64,000 bases of DNA, taken from the IMG/VR virus record IMGVR_UViG_3300005613_000046, positions 1 through 64,000 of that record, one strand, 5' to 3'. The translations under genes were made by a program, and so were the position numbers. The DNA is from a virus. This document shows, piece after piece, positions 10,785 to 45,166 of this stretch. A model generated the notes under the pieces. That model did no database searches, was not told the origin of the DNA, and saw only the letters and a program-made list of their open reading frames with translations. Within the stretch, counting starts at the first letter, position 1; each line of letters starts with the position of its first letter.

Positions 10785-11180
10785 TTATTTCTTTACTTTA
10801 ACAATTTCAACCGTGTCAACGGGTTCCAATGTTACGTCAATAACACCTCTTTTTAAGAAATTAAGTTGTTTTGCAGTTCCATAACTAAGATCAATAAGAA
10901 TTGATGATGACCTTGGAAGTCTATCATTTACCTTAACAAAACATACAGAGTCATTATTCAAATTAGTAACTTTTAGTATTGTTCCGAACTTAAAGTATTT
11001 GTGTGCTGCAGTCAAACTATCAGAATAAAACCTTTCACCAGACGCCGTAAGTCTTCCTGTCCAATGTTGTCCGTAGTATGTCGCCTTACCTTTATACACT
11101 ATCGGATCTGAAGAAACAAAAGAAATTAGAAAGGTTGATAATAAAATTAAAATTATTTTATTTAAAATTTTTGTAGTCAT
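10785..11180 (-). CDS. RlpA-like double-psi beta-barrel protein
   Basis: A signal peptide (TTKILNKIILILLSTFLI) is followed by the RlpA core: GKATYYG, GRLTASGERF, LTAAHKYFKFGT, VTNLNNDS, VKVNDRLP and IDLSYGTAKQL. RlpA proteins bind or cleave peptidoglycan glycan strands. The conserved D in VNDR and the H in TAAH are present. The start at 11180 is preferred to 11207 because it makes a clean signal peptide. In a phage it may help lysis or cell-wall remodelling. No SPOR domain is attached. Confidence 0.8.
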   Translation of the reverse strand: MTTKILNKIILILLSTFLISFVSSDPIVYKGKATYYGQHWTGRLTASGERFYSDSLTAAHKYFKFGTILKVTNLNNDSVCFVKVNDRLPRSSSILIDLSYGTAKQLNFLKRGVIDVTLEPVDTVEIVKVKK

Positions 11181-12411
11181 AAGTTGTAGATATTTTTCTT
11201 TTACCATATTTTTTTTCCATTATTTGTTGATGAAGATCCCAATTTAAAATTGATTCACTAACAGGTTGATCATCATCTTTCGCCATTGCATATAATTTTC
11301 CAATTTTCTTTAACATTTTGGTTGACACGTAATTAAATTTTTCAATTTCATCTTCAAAAAATTTGATCGGATTGTTTTCGTATTTAATTACATAGTTTAA
11401 AAACTTTTTTCTAATCTCATCCGTTTTTTCTAAAGCTTTAACTTTTTCTTCCGCTCCTGAAGGTAGTAAACCAAGTTGTCCTCCAAATCTTAAAATGTCA
11501 TCCATGGCATGTTCTGTCATTGCCATAAACATTTTCATTTTGTTATTTACTAGATCAATATAGACAAGTTCCAAAACCCGATTTATTTTTTCATCAATTG
11601 TCATATCAGACGGATCTTCACCTATATGATCAATTAGTGCATCTAATCTATCTTCACTTCCTTTTAATTGTGAAATAAAATCATCGAATGTAAAGTTTTT
11701 AATTTTTAACAATTCATTATATACTCTGTTGTTTTCTAAAAACTCTCTGAACTTTGATTTTGTGATATTTTTTCTTCTAAGTTCATAAGCAACTTCTGTT
11801 GGTCTAACAAGATTTTCAATTCCTGATATATAATACAGATATCTAAAGAAAACTCTATCAATCACCGGTATTCCAAAAGTTCCTCTTATTTGAGTTGCTT
11901 GGTATTCAGCATCAGGACCAATCAAACCATATAGTTTAGCTTGTTTATCGTATTTGTGTTTAATCTCATGAGCCAAAGAAGAAACATATTCATCTCTTTC
12001 TTCTTCCATTTTACGAATAAGACCTTCTGGTGACCAATTTTCACCAACAGCAAAAGTTATACTCAATTCCAATTTGGTTGATGGTTCGTTTTCTTTCATG
12101 AATTTATCCCTGTCGAACCCAAATCTTCCTCCCATTCCCATTTGAACGATGTCCAAAACTCCTTCTTCATCTTCAATCTCTTCAATAGTCACGGTAAGTT
12201 CATATGAATCCACTTTTATCTTCTTTTTATCACCTAACTCAAATTCAATATCACCATCAAATACATATTCATCTTGTATTGTGTCAATTGATTTAATGTC
12301 TTTTTCAACAACATCATATAACATGTCGGCAGCATCCAAAATATTATCAGGAACCCCTAACGCTTCAGTAATAAGTCTCAATTGACTTTCGGTGATTAAA
12401 ATATTTTTCAT
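11158..12411 (-). CDS. Putative HExxH metallopeptidase with virion-type N-terminal leader
   Basis: The protein begins MKNILITESQLRLITEALG, the leader shared with four other proteins here. A zincin-like motif LAHEIKHKYD (HExxH) lies near residues 146-155 within a helical region; downstream acidic helices could supply the third zinc ligand. The rest is helical and charged. If the leader is a capsid-targeting sequence, this would be a packaged protease delivered with the DNA or used in virion maturation. An ATATTTAT-type box sits at 12416-12423. The peptidase call rests on one short motif. Confidence 0.65.
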   Translation of the reverse strand: MKNILITESQLRLITEALGVPDNILDAADMLYDVVEKDIKSIDTIQDEYVFDGDIEFELGDKKKIKVDSYELTVTIEEIEDEEGVLDIVQMGMGGRFGFDRDKFMKENEPSTKLELSITFAVGENWSPEGLIRKMEEERDEYVSSLAHEIKHKYDKQAKLYGLIGPDAEYQATQIRGTFGIPVIDRVFFRYLYYISGIENLVRPTEVAYELRRKNITKSKFREFLENNRVYNELLKIKNFTFDDFISQLKGSEDRLDALIDHIGEDPSDMTIDEKINRVLELVYIDLVNNKMKMFMAMTEHAMDDILRFGGQLGLLPSGAEEKVKALEKTDEIRKKFLNYVIKYENNPIKFFEDEIEKFNYVSTKMLKKIGKLYAMAKDDDQPVSESILNWDLHQQIMEKKYGKRKISTTYDYKNFK

Positions 12412-25558: not shown

Positions 25559-25675
25559 TTAATTATTTTCTTTGTTTTTGTGTTTTGTTTTTCTAGTATA
25601 GTTTTTCTTACTTTTTTGAATAGAAGGTCTTGTCGCCTGCCATATTTCATTCATAGTAAGTTCAATCTTTTTCAT
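25559..25675 (-). CDS. 38-residue basic microprotein upstream of DUF932
   Basis: The frame reads MKKIELTMNEIWQATRPSIQ followed by a highly basic tail of Lys, Arg and Asn. It ends three bases before the DUF932 start, and it is the first gene after the promoter. The basic tail suggests nucleic-acid binding or an interaction with the DUF932 product. Strong position evidence, no family. Confidence 0.6.
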   Translation of the reverse strand: MKKIELTMNEIWQATRPSIQKSKKNYTRKTKHKNKENN

Positions 25676-28549: not shown

Positions 28550-29155
28550 CTAATCTAAATTTTCTAATTCAACCTCAACATCAATAGGAATTCCATATTT
28601 TTCTAATAATTTGTAGAAAAAATCATAACATTGGTAATTTAGTGCACCAAAAAAGTCACCAGTTTCATACGCTTCTTGAGCTTCATAGAGTGCATCCCAA
28701 AGACTACCATTAACCAAACTTTGTTCCTCAGTGTCAGGATCAAGGAAATCATAACTTACTGTTCCGTTACCATCAATCTCAACTAATAGAACGACAACAT
28801 CGTATTTATAACCCCCTCCTTTTACTTCCTCAATATTAGTGACTTTAATTTCAGTGTCTAAGTCTATTTCAGGGACAAAAAGTCTAAAAGTTTTATCTAA
28901 GACCTCTTCTGTTAATTTTTCAAATAGATTATTAAAACCTCCGTTATACCTATACCAAATAGGTCTTATTTTTTGAAAGTCTTCGTTTGTATTTTTTTGA
29001 ATTCCAGAAATATCATAAATAATATCATCAAGATGAGGTTCTTCACCCATCTTTTTTTGTTTGTCCCAAATTTTATAACAAAACTTGCGAAGATTTTCTT
29101 CGGTAAGATTTTCCGAAATCAAATTTTGTTGTCTTTCTGATATTATTATTTTCAT
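28550..29155 (-). CDS. Leader-bearing protein, 201 aa
   Basis: Begins MKIIISERQQNLISENLTEE, in the same family as the leaders at 29152, 29448, 11158 and 13552. After the leader come helical segments (RKFCYKIWDKQKKMGEE) and a beta-rich, acidic half. Start is exact because ATG overlaps the next gene's stop. If I-S-E after the leader is a protease site, the mature protein would begin near residue 17. Function unknown. Confidence 0.6.
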   Translation of the reverse strand: MKIIISERQQNLISENLTEENLRKFCYKIWDKQKKMGEEPHLDDIIYDISGIQKNTNEDFQKIRPIWYRYNGGFNNLFEKLTEEVLDKTFRLFVPEIDLDTEIKVTNIEEVKGGGYKYDVVVLLVEIDGNGTVSYDFLDPDTEEQSLVNGSLWDALYEAQEAYETGDFFGALNYQCYDFFYKLLEKYGIPIDVEVELENLD

Positions 29156-29448
29156 CTTCTTTTTTTAACTTTATTAAAACCATTTCTAATTTTTTCATTA
29201 AACTGACCACTAGATAACAATAAAAAATCAAATTTATCGGGTGTTATCTTAGGATTTCTATACTCAAACTCCCTTCTAACTCTACTAATAAGCCGATTCT
29301 CATAAACCCCAAAATTATCAGGTTTATTACCTGGTCCTCCTTTTTTAATATCATTATTAAGTTCAATAATAACCTCATCAATGATTTGACCTATTTCGGT
29401 TAATCTTCTTAATAATTTTATTTGATCTTCTGTTATTAATATTTTCAT
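29152..29448 (-). CDS. Leader-bearing protein, 98 aa
   Basis: Begins MKILITEDQIKLLRRLTEIG, the leader in its clearest form (MK-I-x-I-T-E-x-Q-x-x-L). The body is basic, with YRNPKITPDKFDFLLLS and a Lys-rich end. Its TAATG-type overlap with the downstream and upstream leader genes shows that three leader-bearing genes are one tight operon. Function unknown. Confidence 0.6.
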   Translation of the reverse strand: MKILITEDQIKLLRRLTEIGQIIDEVIIELNNDIKKGGPGNKPDNFGVYENRLISRVRREFEYRNPKITPDKFDFLLLSSGQFNEKIRNGFNKVKKRR

Positions 29449-29822
29449 TATCCTATGTTTGCACCACTTACTTCTTTTATTTCTACATCAGGGAATAATT
29501 TTTTGAAGTAGTCATATACTGCGTGTTTGATGTGTCTTGATACAATATGGTATGGTATTACCTCTTCCATCTGCTCATCAACAGAATAATCATAATATAA
29601 GGTTTTAGATTCTTTTCTATACACAAATAGTAAATTACCATTTTCACCCATTAAGTATATTGACCCATGACTGTCGCCGTAAGACTTAACATCCTGTTTT
29701 ACCATCTTTATAAACAACTTCTTATACTTCGGGTATTCATCAATATACTCCGCATCGAAACGATCTCTATTGTAGTCTTCGTTGATTAACCTTAACTGAT
29801 CTTCAGTGATTATGATTTTCAT
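29448..29822 (-). CDS. Leader-bearing protein, 124 aa
   Basis: The second methionine (29822) is chosen because it begins the family leader MKIIITEDQLRLINEDYNRD and lies four bases after a late-type box; the earlier ATG (29855) would put 11 extra residues before it. The body has beta-strand-like GSIYLMGENGNLLFVYRKES and an amphipathic end. I-N-E in the leader is a candidate cleavage site. Function unknown. Confidence 0.6.
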   Translation of the reverse strand: MKIIITEDQLRLINEDYNRDRFDAEYIDEYPKYKKLFIKMVKQDVKSYGDSHGSIYLMGENGNLLFVYRKESKTLYYDYSVDEQMEEVIPYHIVSRHIKHAVYDYFKKLFPDVEIKEVSGANIG

Positions 29823-37340: not shown

Positions 37341-39068
37341 TTATTGAGTCTTTCTGTTGTAACCCATAAGTGATTGAATTCTATCAAACTCCTCATTTAA
37401 TTTAACATCTTTCTTTGTTTCTACAGACTCTTCTAATTTATTTAAAATACTTTGAGATGTTTTTTTACCACGTTTAGATTTTAATGATCCTCTTTCAGTA
37501 TGTTCACCTGCTTGATCAACAGGTTGTGGTTGTCTTTTATAAGACGCTTTTTGTTGTTCTTGACCGTAAAGATTATCTTTAAAGTTTTTATAGAATTTTT
37601 CACCTGTTTCGCTTGGAACAACATTACCTAATGCGTTTCCGTCTTTATCTACTTGAGCGTTTCCAGTTCTTGAGGAACCTTTCAATAAATCTTCGATCCA
37701 TTCGTCATTTGGTTTAATTTCATCATATACCAAATTAGTTTGTCCGGGATAAGAAAACGCATCCACATACTCGTCAACAGCATCAGATGGTGTGTATTTC
37801 TTTCTATTACCTTTTTTCATTCCACCATTTTCAGTTGGGAATTTTTTGGTTTCTTTCATCTCATATTTTGACCCATCATCAGACATACCTTTTAAATAGT
37901 CTGTCATTTTTTTAGCAACGCTTTTCAAATAATCGTCATTCTCTTTTTTGTCCGCCTTATGAGCTCTTTCGTATTCTCTATAACCTTTTGGTTCTGATTT
38001 ATTAAATTTTGTTTCTTCAACAACTATATTTTCAATAAGATCAATTAAGTCCGACTCAGTGTAAAGAATTGATTCTTTAACTTTAGCTTTACCCTTTCCT
38101 TTCCATCCTTGTTTCGCTCTTTTGGCAAAATATAATTGACTCATCTTGGTTCTATTTTTTTGTGGAACTTTTTTTCCGTCTTCCTTGAACTTGTCATTTT
38201 GTTTTTTCAATTTACTAATTGCTGAGTTTAACTCTTCAATTGACATGTCTGAATATTCACCAGTTTGTTCTACCTCGACATCTCCTTCCCATTTTTCATT
38301 TACTTGATATTTTTTTCCGTCAACTTCAAAGGTATCTTTTCCTTCTATCTCTCTGTCAAATTCAACTTCATAAAGTTGTTCAGTTTCATCTTGTTGTTTT
38401 CTTAACATTTTGAAGTCTTCTTTATCTATTCTTCCGTTTTTGTTTCTATCTAACTTATGTTGCTTACCGTATAATTTCTCATCTAATTCTTCTTCAGATA
38501 AATCTAATTCGAAATCAAATTCTTCATCATCACCTTCTTTTTTTGCTATTTCTTTCTCTCCACCACTTACAAGTTTATCTTGATATGCCCATAACTCATC
38601 TTCACTACCAAAATTACGCATTCTTTCATATTCATCATGTGAATACCAACTTTCATCTAATTCGAAATCATCATCTCTTTTATTTCTTTTTCTTGGTTTG
38701 TAATCCTCCTCATCATCTTCGTCTTCATCTTCCATTCCGTATAACAAGTCTTCCATTTGTTTTTTAGTTAACTTTGAAAGATTTTTGTCTCCAAACTTAG
38801 GATGAGAATCTTCCATACCTCCAAGCTCCATGACTTCCCCTTTTCCACCACATTGTTCACATGTTTCACCTTCTTTTATTTCACCACCACACTGTTCACA
38901 TGTTTCACCTTCATTCATTTCCTCTTCAACGTAATCAAATTCATTTTCAGGGTATAGTTCAGTTTCTTCATCGTAATTTAATTTTGTCATTAAAGAATCC
39001 GCCTTCTCTTGAAGACTTTCTCTAAGAATTTTTTTAAATCTTGATATTACAAATTGTTCTTTATTCAT
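37341..39068 (-). CDS. Leader-bearing zinc/EF-hand protein, 575 aa
   Basis: The start MNKEQFVISRFKKILRESLQ is a basic leader with L-R-E before Ser. Residues 55-80 carry two zinc-like pairs (CEQCGGEIKEGETCEQCGG). An EF-hand loop DRNKNGRIDKEDF lies near residue 215. The rest is a highly charged disordered polymer of Glu, Asp and Lys. A late-type box is at 39083-39090. Probably a virion-internal or scaffold protein with metal sites. The size and composition point to a capsid cargo. Confidence 0.65.
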   Translation of the reverse strand: MNKEQFVISRFKKILRESLQEKADSLMTKLNYDEETELYPENEFDYVEEEMNEGETCEQCGGEIKEGETCEQCGGKGEVMELGGMEDSHPKFGDKNLSKLTKKQMEDLLYGMEDEDEDDEEDYKPRKRNKRDDDFELDESWYSHDEYERMRNFGSEDELWAYQDKLVSGGEKEIAKKEGDDEEFDFELDLSEEELDEKLYGKQHKLDRNKNGRIDKEDFKMLRKQQDETEQLYEVEFDREIEGKDTFEVDGKKYQVNEKWEGDVEVEQTGEYSDMSIEELNSAISKLKKQNDKFKEDGKKVPQKNRTKMSQLYFAKRAKQGWKGKGKAKVKESILYTESDLIDLIENIVVEETKFNKSEPKGYREYERAHKADKKENDDYLKSVAKKMTDYLKGMSDDGSKYEMKETKKFPTENGGMKKGNRKKYTPSDAVDEYVDAFSYPGQTNLVYDEIKPNDEWIEDLLKGSSRTGNAQVDKDGNALGNVVPSETGEKFYKNFKDNLYGQEQQKASYKRQPQPVDQAGEHTERGSLKSKRGKKTSQSILNKLEESVETKKDVKLNEEFDRIQSLMGYNRKTQ

Positions 39069-43392: not shown

Positions 43393-43483
43393 CAAAATAA
43401 TTAATTTGACATGAAATATAAACCCTATAAAGATAGAATTGGGGTTTACCTTGGTGAGTTCATTATTTAATAATTTTTTTAAG

Positions 43484-43491
43484 ATATTTAT
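43484..43491 (+). promoter_or_regulatory. ATATTTAT late-type box (plus strand)
   Basis: ATATTTAT lies five bases before the ATG at 43497; with 43385 it makes a divergent late-type control region. Confidence 0.4.
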
Positions 43492-43496
43492 TTTAT

Positions 43497-44120
43497 ATGA
43501 AAAATTTAATTAAAAATATTTTAAATGAATATTTTAATGAAAAAAATATAATATTACGTGAGATAAATTTACCTGATAGAATTTTTAATTTATTAATCAC
43601 AGAAGGAACTGCCACAGTAAAGATACCAGAAGGGTTGGAGTCTTCATTAAAAAAATACATTTCTAAAAAATTTAATTGGCCTCCCACTGTCGATTCAAAA
43701 TGGTGTAGTGATATAAAAGAAAAAATTAATAAAGATGGGAGACTAGTTAAATCTTGTAATAAAATATTCGAAATTGAATTGACTAATCATTGGTTAAAAA
43801 GACTTTTTAGAAAAAACGAACCTGAATACCAAAAAGGCGGAAAATTTCAAAATAAAAAATTTGAAAACCCAAAGAAAACCGAGGGTATTGATTTATTTTT
43901 CAATAGTTCCAAAAAAATAAATGATTTTATAGATAATTCTCATAATTGGCAAGTCAATGATTCAAAACTTATATTATTAACTGATTTAAGTAATAAGTAT
44001 CAAGTTATAATAGAGTTAAAAAAAGAAAAAAGATCAAATTATATTGCAAGGTTTATAACACAAATTAAGGGTGAAAAATTTTTCGATACACCAGAATTAA
44101 GAAAATCAATAAGATTATAA
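43497..44120 (+). CDS. Leader-like protein with I-T-E-G site, 207 aa
   Basis: The N-terminus MKNLIKNILNEYFNEKNIIL then LLITEGTATV contains an I-T-E before Gly, a perfect T4 gp21-type site (I/L-x-E then G/A). The protein is basic, and its middle holds DLFFNSSKKINDFID and a ELKKEKRSNYIARFITQIKG block. A terminator-like hairpin follows the stop, but its T-run lies on the opposite strand. Function unknown. Confidence 0.6.
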   Translation: MKNLIKNILNEYFNEKNIILREINLPDRIFNLLITEGTATVKIPEGLESSLKKYISKKFNWPPTVDSKWCSDIKEKINKDGRLVKSCNKIFEIELTNHWLKRLFRKNEPEYQKGGKFQNKKFENPKKTEGIDLFFNSSKKINDFIDNSHNWQVNDSKLILLTDLSNKYQVIIELKKEKRSNYIARFITQIKGEKFFDTPELRKSIRL

Positions 44121-44146
44121 AAAAAGGGTGGATTTTACTCCACCCT
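44118..44146 (-). terminator. Intrinsic terminator of the 44.1-44.36 kb unit
   Basis: On the minus strand AGGGTGGA pairs with TCCACCCT and is followed by a seven-T run. This end, with the promoter at 44328, bounds a short minus-strand transcript. Confidence 0.75.
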
Positions 44147-44255
44147 AATTGATTTCATATCGAGAAATCGGTCGTCCATTGGGCTGTGTATGGATAAGCC
44201 GGTGATCACCACATTTCTGTGTATTCAGTGAATGTCCCTCTTTTTCGATCACCAT
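44145..44255 (-). CDS. 36-residue sORF in the promoter/terminator-bounded unit
   Basis: The frame reads MVIEKEGHSLNTQKCGDHRL followed by IHTQPNGRPISRYEIN. A GGTAGGGTT sequence gives an unusual purine-rich RBS three bases before the ATG. The stop sits inside the terminator hairpin. The RNA is about 200 bases, so it may equally be a structured noncoding RNA. The conservation of this peptide would settle which. Confidence 0.45.
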   Translation of the reverse strand: MVIEKEGHSLNTQKCGDHRLIHTQPNGRPISRYEIN

Positions 44256-44327
44256 AACCCTACCTAAGCAGGATTATGAAACTTTTTTAATGGAAAGCCA
44301 CAAAACCAATTGTCTAATTCAACACTA
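44148..44327 (-). ncRNA. Candidate short RNA or small mRNA leader (see finding)
   Basis: The minus strand between the 44328 promoter and the 44118 terminator yields a roughly 200-base transcript. It contains GTGATC...GATCACC (pairing of distant halves) and several short stems, but no tRNA, tmRNA or 6S signature that I recognise. Its only ORF is the 36-residue frame. Assignment as RNA gene is inferred from bounds, not family. Confidence 0.35.
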
Positions 44328-44357
44328 CAAAGATAATACAATTTTTTAAACCGCCAA
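44328..44357 (-). promoter_or_regulatory. Bacteroidota-type promoter TTG-N19-TATCTTTG
   Basis: TTG, 19 bases, TATCTTTG, and ACACTACAAAGATA on the plus strand, identical to the segment at 1994-2005. It points into the 44.1-44.3 kb unit. Confidence 0.75.
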
Positions 44358-44365
44358 AAATTATT

Positions 44366-45166
44366 TTATAAATAGTCAAATAATTCAGAAGAGTCGTTTC
44401 GTAGTCGACGAAGAGCCTTTTCTTTGATCTGACGAACTCTTTCTTTGGTTAGACCAAAGTCTGAACCAATGTCCTCCAAAGTTCGTGGTGTCCCACTTAA
44501 ACCAAAGTAATCGGCTACGATAACCTTCTCACGATCATCCAATACGTGTAAAAGTTTCATTAACTTATCTTTTAGAACATCTTTGGTGTCAAATACCGCA
44601 TCAGGTAATTCGGCATCCTTATTCTCAATCATATCAATCAAAGTATCACCATCTTCATTAATATTCATATCAAGATCTATTATTGAAGGTAGTGTTGAAA
44701 ACTTATCCTCAAGTTTTTTTCCTGATTGTTCCACCTCTTTTTTTGCCCTTTGTAGATCTTGAACTACATTGACCGGTAGACGAATTGTTCTTGCGTTATC
44801 ATTTAACGATTGAATGATTGATTGTTTGATCCACCATACACCATAAGAAATGAAACGTAAATCTTTGTTCCAATCAAAGTTTTTAATCGCCTTCATAAGT
44901 CCAAGGTTTCCTTCAGCAATAAGATCTGACATATCAAGTCCTTGATTTTGATATTGTTTTGCAACCGTAATAACAAAACGAAGATTTCCTTCAATAAGTT
45001 CCCTTTCTATTCTTTTTCGTTCAGATGTGGGAGTATCTTCTGACTTCATTTTTTTTGCCAGTTCTCGCTCTCGTTCTGCAGTCATTACCTTAATTTTTCT
45101 AATGTCTCTAAGGTAGTGTTGAAGTTCGTCTTGATTAATGTGTGCTCCTGTGTTTTTGTCTTTCAT
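44366..45166 (-). CDS. RNA polymerase sigma-70 family factor (RpoD/SigA-like, phage-encoded)
   Basis: The 266 residues contain region 1.2 (ELQHYLRDIRKIKVMTAERE), region 2 from about 56-125 with DLIAEGNLGLMKAIKNFDW and YGVWWIKQSIIQSL (2.4), region 3, and region 4 with RTLEDIGSDFGLTKERVRQI and KALRRLR. Region 1.1 is missing, as in small sigma factors. It would direct the host RNA polymerase to phage promoters. The ATATTTAT class seen here is the natural candidate. The gene ends just downstream of the promoter for the 44-kb RNA. Confidence 0.93.
   Translation of the reverse strand: MKDKNTGAHINQDELQHYLRDIRKIKVMTAERERELAKKMKSEDTPTSERKRIERELIEGNLRFVITVAKQYQNQGLDMSDLIAEGNLGLMKAIKNFDWNKDLRFISYGVWWIKQSIIQSLNDNARTIRLPVNVVQDLQRAKKEVEQSGKKLEDKFSTLPSIIDLDMNINEDGDTLIDMIENKDAELPDAVFDTKDVLKDKLMKLLHVLDDREKVIVADYFGLSGTPRTLEDIGSDFGLTKERVRQIKEKALRRLRNDSSELFDYL

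What the first reader, a model, noticed from the sequence alone, without database searches (positions are those of the whole stretch)
44118..44357. Promoter- and terminator-bounded 200-base unit with no known gene
A full TTG-N19-TATCTTTG promoter at 44328-44357 points to a minus-strand region of about 200 bases that ends in a perfect intrinsic terminator at 44118-44146, just downstream of the sigma factor gene. Its sequence is less A+T-rich than its surroundings. It holds one 36-residue ORF with an AGGG site before the ATG, but also several inverted-repeat segments. It could be a phage small RNA, perhaps acting on RNA polymerase or ribosomes, or a microprotein mRNA.
Basis: partly seen in the sequence, partly recalled or inferred. 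Interest (0 to 1): 0.65.

Follow-up and report, generated by a model that had tools for sequence, protein, structure and literature searches.

The report
Phage pseudoknot RNA beside RelE-like gene
A large phage of aquatic Bacteroidota carries a small structured RNA gene of an apparently undescribed family, often found tail-to-tail with a gene for a protein that looks like an RNA-cutting toxin, so it may be the RNA half of a new kind of toxin-antitoxin pair.

Summary
The unit is real: a perfect Bacteroidota promoter (44358-44328, minus strand), about 206 nt, and a terminator (44146-44118). It is a non-coding RNA gene; the 36-residue ORF is not conserved. Homologues were found in about 20 large-phage contigs and one Flavobacteriales MAG. 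They share a stem (P3) enclosing a GAAUAC linker and a small hairpin (P3b), followed by an H-type pseudoknot. Covariation is very strong: on 14 distinct sequences, 97.5% of cells pair and 16 of 20 pairs change on both sides; slid controls give 28-46% and 1-5. No Rfam family matches. Every relative found of the neighbouring 207-aa gene (43497-44120 +), on 14 contigs in about 7 lineages, has this RNA convergent across a terminator hairpin; the RNA also occurs without the protein. The protein's C-terminal domain is predicted with a RelE-like topology (best solved match, not significant, is HigBA2) and has conserved H-R-R and QxKG residues. Its N-terminus resembles a T4 capsid-targeting peptide. 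Best mechanism: the RNA binds and restrains this toxin-like protein, like a type III antitoxin but with different architecture; inferred, not shown. Orphan copies may counter host toxins. Sigma genes adjoin the RNA in two unrelated phage groups, so a transcription role remains a rival.

The parts
44328..44358 (-). Bacteroidota sigma-A-type promoter TTTG-N19-TATCTTTG; predicted +1 near 44323
   Evidence: consensus from PMC9723704; conserved upstream of homologues L061, L088, L098, L121, L133, L155
44118..44323 (-). structured non-coding RNA gene, about 206 nt (ends predicted, not mapped)
   Evidence: homologues and covariation
44291..44308 (-). 5' hairpin H1 (UGG/CCA around UUUUGUGGCUUU); absent from the core-only subtype L121/L133
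   Evidence: alignments A7, A9; by inspection
44254..44278 (-). hairpin H2 (CAUAAUCC...GGGUUAU); variable between homologues
   Evidence: fold of the strand; by inspection of homologues
44201..44253 (-). P3 stem (44253-44247 with 44207-44201) enclosing the GAAUAC linker (44226-44221) and hairpin P3b CACA-GAAA-UGUG (44221-44210)
   Evidence: 6 of 7 P3 pairs and 2 of 4 P3b pairs change on both sides
44175..44200 (-). H-type pseudoknot: S1 GGCU 44200-44197 with AGCC 44185-44182; S2 UCCAU 44194-44190 with AUGGA 44179-44175
   Evidence: 3 of 4 S1 pairs and 5 of 5 S2 pairs change on both sides; 98% of cells paired
44151..44169 (-). 3' hairpin GAUUUC-UCGAUAU-GAAAUC
   Evidence: equivalent hairpins with other stem sequences in L061, L088, L104, L159 (by inspection)
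44118..44146 (-). intrinsic terminator, directly beyond the stop codon of the convergent gene
   Evidence: same placement in 8 loci inspected
43497..44120 (+). convergent 207-aa protein gene: N-terminal MKNLIKNILNE (capsid-targeting-like), C-terminal RelE-like domain (residues 84-207)
   Evidence: 14 of 14 contigs with a homologue have the RNA convergent; AlphaFold2 model of the C-terminal domain pLDDT 88; Foldseek top match HigBA2 complex chain, E 0.17, not significant
43483..43491 (+). GATATTTAT motif upstream of the 207-aa gene, a putative phage promoter element
   Evidence: ATATTTAT lies within 45 nt upstream of 11 of 69 ORFs, 0.5 expected; GATATTTAT 9 in window, 2.1 expected
44366..45166 (-). 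phage sigma-70-like factor gene, upstream neighbour of the RNA
   Evidence: Pfam

Best explanation
The region is an independent small-RNA gene of an apparently undescribed family. The RNA folds into a stem-enclosed junction followed by an H-type pseudoknot. Shown by sequence comparison: the gene, its promoter and terminator, the fold, and its consistent tail-to-tail pairing with the 207-aa gene. Inferred: the 207-aa protein is a RelE/HigB-fold ribonuclease-like toxin or effector, and the RNA binds and restrains it, working like a type III RNA antitoxin though not a member of that class. The RNA is read from a host-type promoter, so it should be made early and abundantly; the protein is preceded by a phage promoter-like motif and carries a capsid-targeting-like leader. 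RNA copies without the protein are either what remains after toxin loss or decoys against related host toxins.
For: Homologues and structure; pair counts 97.5% paired, 16 of 20 pairs with double changes, slid controls 28-46%. Pairing: all 14 contigs with a protein homologue carry the RNA convergent. A diverged protein (20% identical over the C-terminal domain) lies beside a diverged core-only RNA; it was recognised first in L133, and searching with it gave L165 and L166, both with the RNA in place. Asymmetry: RNA occurs without protein (L008, L100, L155, L104, L121, L134, L141), the reverse was never seen; in L133 the protein gene has an in-frame stop while the RNA is intact. Fold: beta-helix-helix-helix-beta-beta-beta, pLDDT 88; toxin-antitoxin (HigBA2 and a pneumococcal module) chains are Foldseek ranks 1, 16 and 26. 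Invariant H, R, R, Q and K residues.
Against: No transcript, toxicity or binding data. Foldseek matches are not significant (best E 0.17), and no Pfam, NCBIfam, PHROGs or PADLOC family matches the protein. The convergent layout and the long single RNA units differ from type III systems. The 14 contigs represent only about 7 protein lineages, so hitchhiking as a mobile cassette is possible. Several RNA sites have no protein, and two unrelated ones adjoin sigma genes.
Confidence: 0.48

Rival explanations
1. Anti-defence decoy: the RNA acts in trans on a host toxin or nuclease (as pseudo-ToxI of phage PhiTE does on ToxN), and the neighbouring protein is incidental or a captured relative of the target.
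For: RNA without protein in several phages (L008, L100, L155, L121); tandem diverged copies in L095-L097 and L104, as expected if several targets are met; the MAG copies lie near type I restriction and GmrSD genes. Precedent: PMC3475682.
Against: The protein was never found without the RNA, which a decoy alone does not predict. No matching host toxin was identified. Only 1 of about 400 Flavobacteriales genomes holds the RNA.
Confidence: 0.2
2. Transcription regulator: the RNA binds RNA polymerase or a phage sigma factor, 6S-like in effect.
For: It follows the sigma-70-like gene in the window and L008, and is convergent with a gp55-like late sigma gene (PHROG 234, E 3.4e-7) in L100 and L155. 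Another pseudoknot RNA (type A) sits directly after the same sigma gene in 35 of 80 related loci.
Against: No 6S match in Rfam and no rod with a central bubble. Other copies sit in a tRNA cluster or next to DUF932/thioredoxin-like genes. The sigma neighbourhood was noticed after the fact.
Confidence: 0.13
3. Mobile RNA-protein cassette with no direct interaction: both genes share a terminator and move together between intergenic slots.
For: The cassette is found after sigma, after a DNA methyltransferase gene, next to the 96-aa and DUF932-like genes, and elsewhere.
Against: The RNA also persists alone; its structure is under strong constraint; RNA subtype and protein subtype diverge together.
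Confidence: 0.12
4. mRNA for a 36-residue microprotein.
For: ORF of 36 codons.
Against: The frame is closed or start-less in L008, L088, L100 and L121; variation follows base pairing.
Confidence: 0.01

Closest known systems
Type III toxin-antitoxin systems (ToxIN, CptIN, TenpIN)
   Same: Pseudoknotted non-coding RNA genetically coupled to a putative ribonuclease; phage-linked; a terminator between RNA and toxin gene
   Different: Convergent rather than one operon with the RNA upstream; about 200-nt RNA units, each with its own terminator, instead of short repeats; protein is RelE-like by predicted topology and matches no ToxN-type model
pseudo-ToxI RNA of phage PhiTE (PMC3475682)
   Same: Phage-borne structured RNA that mimics an antitoxin; a precedent for orphan copies
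   Different: No sequence relation seen; this RNA has its own promoter and is conserved over several phage lineages
AbiF with its RNA antitoxin RCd22 (PMC12373285)
   Same: Phage-encoded RNA with own promoter and terminator beside a toxin gene; RCd22 binds the protein and acts in trans
   Different: RCd22 is about 100 nt, upstream and co-directional, with AbiF motifs (RF03085); our RNA has no Rfam match
RelE/HigB toxins
   Same: Predicted beta-alpha-beta3 topology of the C-terminal domain; HigBA2 complex is the best Foldseek match
   Different: Match not significant; the usual antitoxin is a protein; extra N-terminal domain and leader
Phage T4 internal proteins with capsid-targeting sequence
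   Same: Short N-terminal M(K/R)xLI(R/K)xILxE-like segment; relatives encode a T4-type prohead protease
   Different: Resemblance only; cleavage and packaging untested

Membership tests
Type III toxin-antitoxin | non-coding RNA with pseudoknot | tested here: met
   S1 and S2 covary, 98% of cells paired
Type III toxin-antitoxin | bicistronic operon, RNA repeats upstream of the toxin gene under one promoter | tested here: not met
   RNA and protein genes are convergent in all loci inspected; definition from PMC5086642
Type III toxin-antitoxin | antitoxin made of short tandem repeats | tested here: not met
   single about 200-nt unit in the window; two diverged units in L095-L097 and L104
Type III toxin-antitoxin | toxin of the ToxN/CptN/TenpN families | tested here: not met
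   no Pfam, NCBIfam or PADLOC match
Type III toxin-antitoxin | toxin neutralised by direct RNA binding | not testable with these tools
   needs experiment
RelE/HigB (BECR) toxin fold | beta-alpha-alpha-beta3 core | tested here: inconclusive
   model topology agrees, pLDDT 88; Foldseek E 0.17 to the HigBA2 complex
6S RNA | Rfam 6S model match | tested here: not met
   no gathering match; none in the permissive search
Any Rfam family | score at or above the gathering threshold | tested here: not met
   window and related loci; only tRNAs matched
Small-protein mRNA | reading frame conserved in homologues | tested here: not met
T4 internal proteins (capsid-targeting sequence) | N-terminal peptide cleaved by the prohead protease, packaging into the head | tested here: inconclusive
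   similar N-terminus in all homologues; protease in relatives G004, G008, G798 but not in the 72-kb fragment G000; packaging not testable

The most novel reading that the evidence does not exclude
A two-gene system in which a large phage packs a RelE-like nuclease into its head and injects it into the next host, while a pseudoknotted RNA, read from a host-type promoter on the opposite strand, keeps the protein inactive during production: a convergent RNA antitoxin for a virion-borne toxin.
Probability: 0.13. Interest if true: 0.88.

Novelty: new variant of a known kind. Interest (0 to 1): 0.62.

Why it matters
Few phage non-coding RNA families are known beyond tRNAs, and RNA antitoxins are known only in a few layouts. 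A covarying pseudoknot RNA that accompanies every known copy of a RelE-like gene, tail to tail, would add a new architecture for RNA control of a toxin. The pair is compact and directly testable in a laboratory strain. The related finding that different structured RNAs occupy the same slots around phage sigma genes suggests that aquatic Bacteroidota phages carry more undescribed RNAs.

Tried and rejected
Microprotein: rejected, frame not conserved. Known RNA family: none at gathering threshold; permissive hits such as istR (19 bits, cut-off 45) look like chance. tRNA or tmRNA in the window: none. E. coli-type promoter scan: uninformative for this phylum. Pattern hit L082 (GGTGATCACCGGCTTATCC) is a coincidence in unrelated sequence. 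Most hits of pattern AATACRTCTNANGATGGTGG lie in unrelated, apparently protein-coding sequence; only L121/L134/L147, L129, L133, L141, L155 and the L095/L100 group are real. Annotated phage records: no RNA homologue and no 207-aa homologue. Whole-protein fold search: nothing significant. Flavobacteriales and Bacteroidia genomes: only the one MAG. MAFFT misplaces one base of P3 in core-only sequences, so a hand-segmented count was made as well.

Full report
Setting. The window is 64,000 bases of a 72,051-base IMG/VR virus record. The unit lies between a phage sigma-70-like gene (44366-45166 minus) and a 207-aa gene of unknown family on the other strand (43497-44120 plus).

Check of the observation. 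TATCTTTG at 44335-44328 fits the flavobacterial sigma-A -7 box TAnnTTTG at -12 to -5 (PMC9723704), giving +1 near 44323 and an RNA of about 206 nt. The generic scans do not exceed shuffles. The Bacteroidota pattern occurs 7 times against 2.0 expected; the two other TATCTTTG copies precede protein genes. The fold alone has z -2.4. The evidence that matters is comparative.

Homologues. Eighty IMG/VR loci with the sigma gene were fetched. L007 and L008 carry an 84% identical copy after sigma; L061 and L064 a roughly 70% copy about 1.8 kb away. Patterns from the conserved loop and the pseudoknot, and a search with the neighbouring protein, gave L084, L086, L088, L095-L099, L100 and a Flavobacteriales MAG contig, L104. 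The pseudoknot pattern found almost nothing else in IMG/VR or in about 85,000 genomes. A covariance model found all of these and no further copy in the sigma loci, plus a diverged core-only copy in the 282-kb record G008; further searches gave L129, L133, L134, L141, L155 and L159.

Structure. Fourteen distinct cores were aligned. P3, P3b and both pseudoknot stems were tested: 97.5% of 280 cells pair, 16 of 20 pairs change on both sides, 59 cells have double changes, covariation score 0.695; no shuffle of 500 reaches these values (the count of further pair types is not unusual, 105 of 500). Sliding one side by 1 to 3 columns gives 28-46% paired and 1-5 such pairs. A hand-segmented count agrees. 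The pseudoknot is S1 (4 bp), 2 nt, S2 (5 bp), 4 nt (AUAC-like), S1', 2 nt, S2', CG. L008 is the exception: its -7 box reads TATTTTTT and it has mismatches in P3, S1 and S2, so it may be decaying. No Rfam family matches the RNA in the window or in related loci.

Not a coding unit. The 36-codon frame is closed or lacks a start in L008, L088, L100 and L121. Bacteroidota lack Shine-Dalgarno sequences (PMC6847099), so the AGGG two bases before the ATG carries little weight.

Partner gene. Homologues of the 207-aa protein were found in L088, the L061 group, L095-L098 and L159. Each has the RNA convergent, separated by a terminator hairpin directly after the stop codon, apparently bidirectional in most. 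Beside the core-only RNA in L133 lies a diverged homologue, split by an in-frame stop, whose two halves rank just below the true family in a profile search (E 0.03 and 0.042). A search with it returned L165 and L166, with open frames and the RNA in the same place. That makes 14 contigs, about 7 protein lineages, with no exception. RNA without protein is common: L008, L100, L155, L104, L121, L134, L141.

The protein. No library identifies it. The full-length model (pLDDT 79) has no significant structural match. The C-terminal domain model (pLDDT 88) has strand, three helices, three strands, as in RelE toxins, and its best solved match is the HigBA2 complex, E 0.17, not significant; a HigBA complex of Shigella (E 2.0, full-length model) and a pneumococcal toxin-antitoxin module also appear. 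His, two Arg and QxKG are invariant even in the diverged L133 copy. The N-terminus M(K/R)xLI(R/K)xILxE recalls the capsid-targeting peptide of T4 internal proteins (the likeness rests on general knowledge; its role is in PMC3012670), and relatives encode a T4-type prohead protease. The gene is preceded by GATATTTAT, a motif enriched upstream of ORFs in the window (11 against 0.5 expected), whereas the RNA has a host-type promoter.

Mechanism. The asymmetry (RNA alone, never protein alone), the co-divergence and the toxin-like predicted fold favour an RNA that restrains the protein. Type III systems are one operon with short repeats upstream of the toxin gene (PMC5086642); these features were tested and not met, so this is not filed as a member, only as working like one. 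RCd22/AbiF (PMC12373285) and pseudo-ToxI (PMC3475682) are precedents for phage-borne RNAs acting this way. Shown: gene, fold, pairing. Inferred: toxicity, binding, timing, packaging.

Rivals. The RNA adjoins sigma-70-like genes in one phage group and a gp55-like late sigma gene in another, so a transcription role stays open. Orphan and tandem copies suit a decoy role. A mobile cassette without interaction cannot be excluded: L088, L159 and L133 have it among similar neighbours, the window and L061 at other sites.

Limits. No expression data were available; boundaries are predicted. IMG/VR contigs are often fragments, and related contigs are not independent. The library of papers held only open-licence work, so prior description of this RNA cannot be ruled out.

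Noticed in passing
L010:5341-5480 and 46 other sigma-gene loci (alignment A11): A different pseudoknot RNA ('type A', GGGTTGAACCGAGATTACCC...) begins 6-21 nt after the sigma stop codon in 35 of 80 loci and lies elsewhere, sometimes with its own promoter, in 12 more. Hairpins covary; no Rfam match. It takes the same slots (after sigma, after the methyltransferase gene) as the window RNA.
   Followed up: partly
L003:5842-6180, L020:5996-6130, L002:5649-5790: Two more promoter-led RNA-like units (types B and C) follow the sigma gene in other relatives; neither matched Rfam where scanned.
   Followed up: no
L100:6200-6634 (-) and L155:4270-4635 (+): gp55-like late sigma factor gene (PHROG 234) convergent with the RNA; a homing endonuclease gene lies next to it in L155.
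   Followed up: partly
L122:10984-11347 (-): Two tandem copies of different subtypes in a Flavobacteriales MAG, near type I restriction (HsdM, HsdR) and GmrSD genes; could be a host element or a misbinned contig.
   Followed up: partly
L147:5850-6080: Core-only copy inside a tRNA gene cluster of a 282-kb phage record that also holds tandem full-length copies.
   Followed up: no
window 11158-12411, 28550-29155, 29448-29822, 37341-39068: Several window proteins begin with short leaders ending in (L/I)xE, such as MKIIITEDQLRLINE and MNKEQFVISRFKKILRE, possibly capsid-targeting peptides.
   Followed up: partly
window 16332, 21907, 27973, 39083, 43385, 43483 and others: GATATTTAT/ATATTTAT motif upstream of many ORFs, a likely phage-specific promoter element.
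   Followed up: partly
window 25575-25675 (-): Small basic protein (MKKIELTMNEIWQATRPSIQKSKKNYTRKTKHKNKENN) behind a TATCTTTG promoter; relatives flank the RNA cassette on both sides in L088.
   Followed up: no
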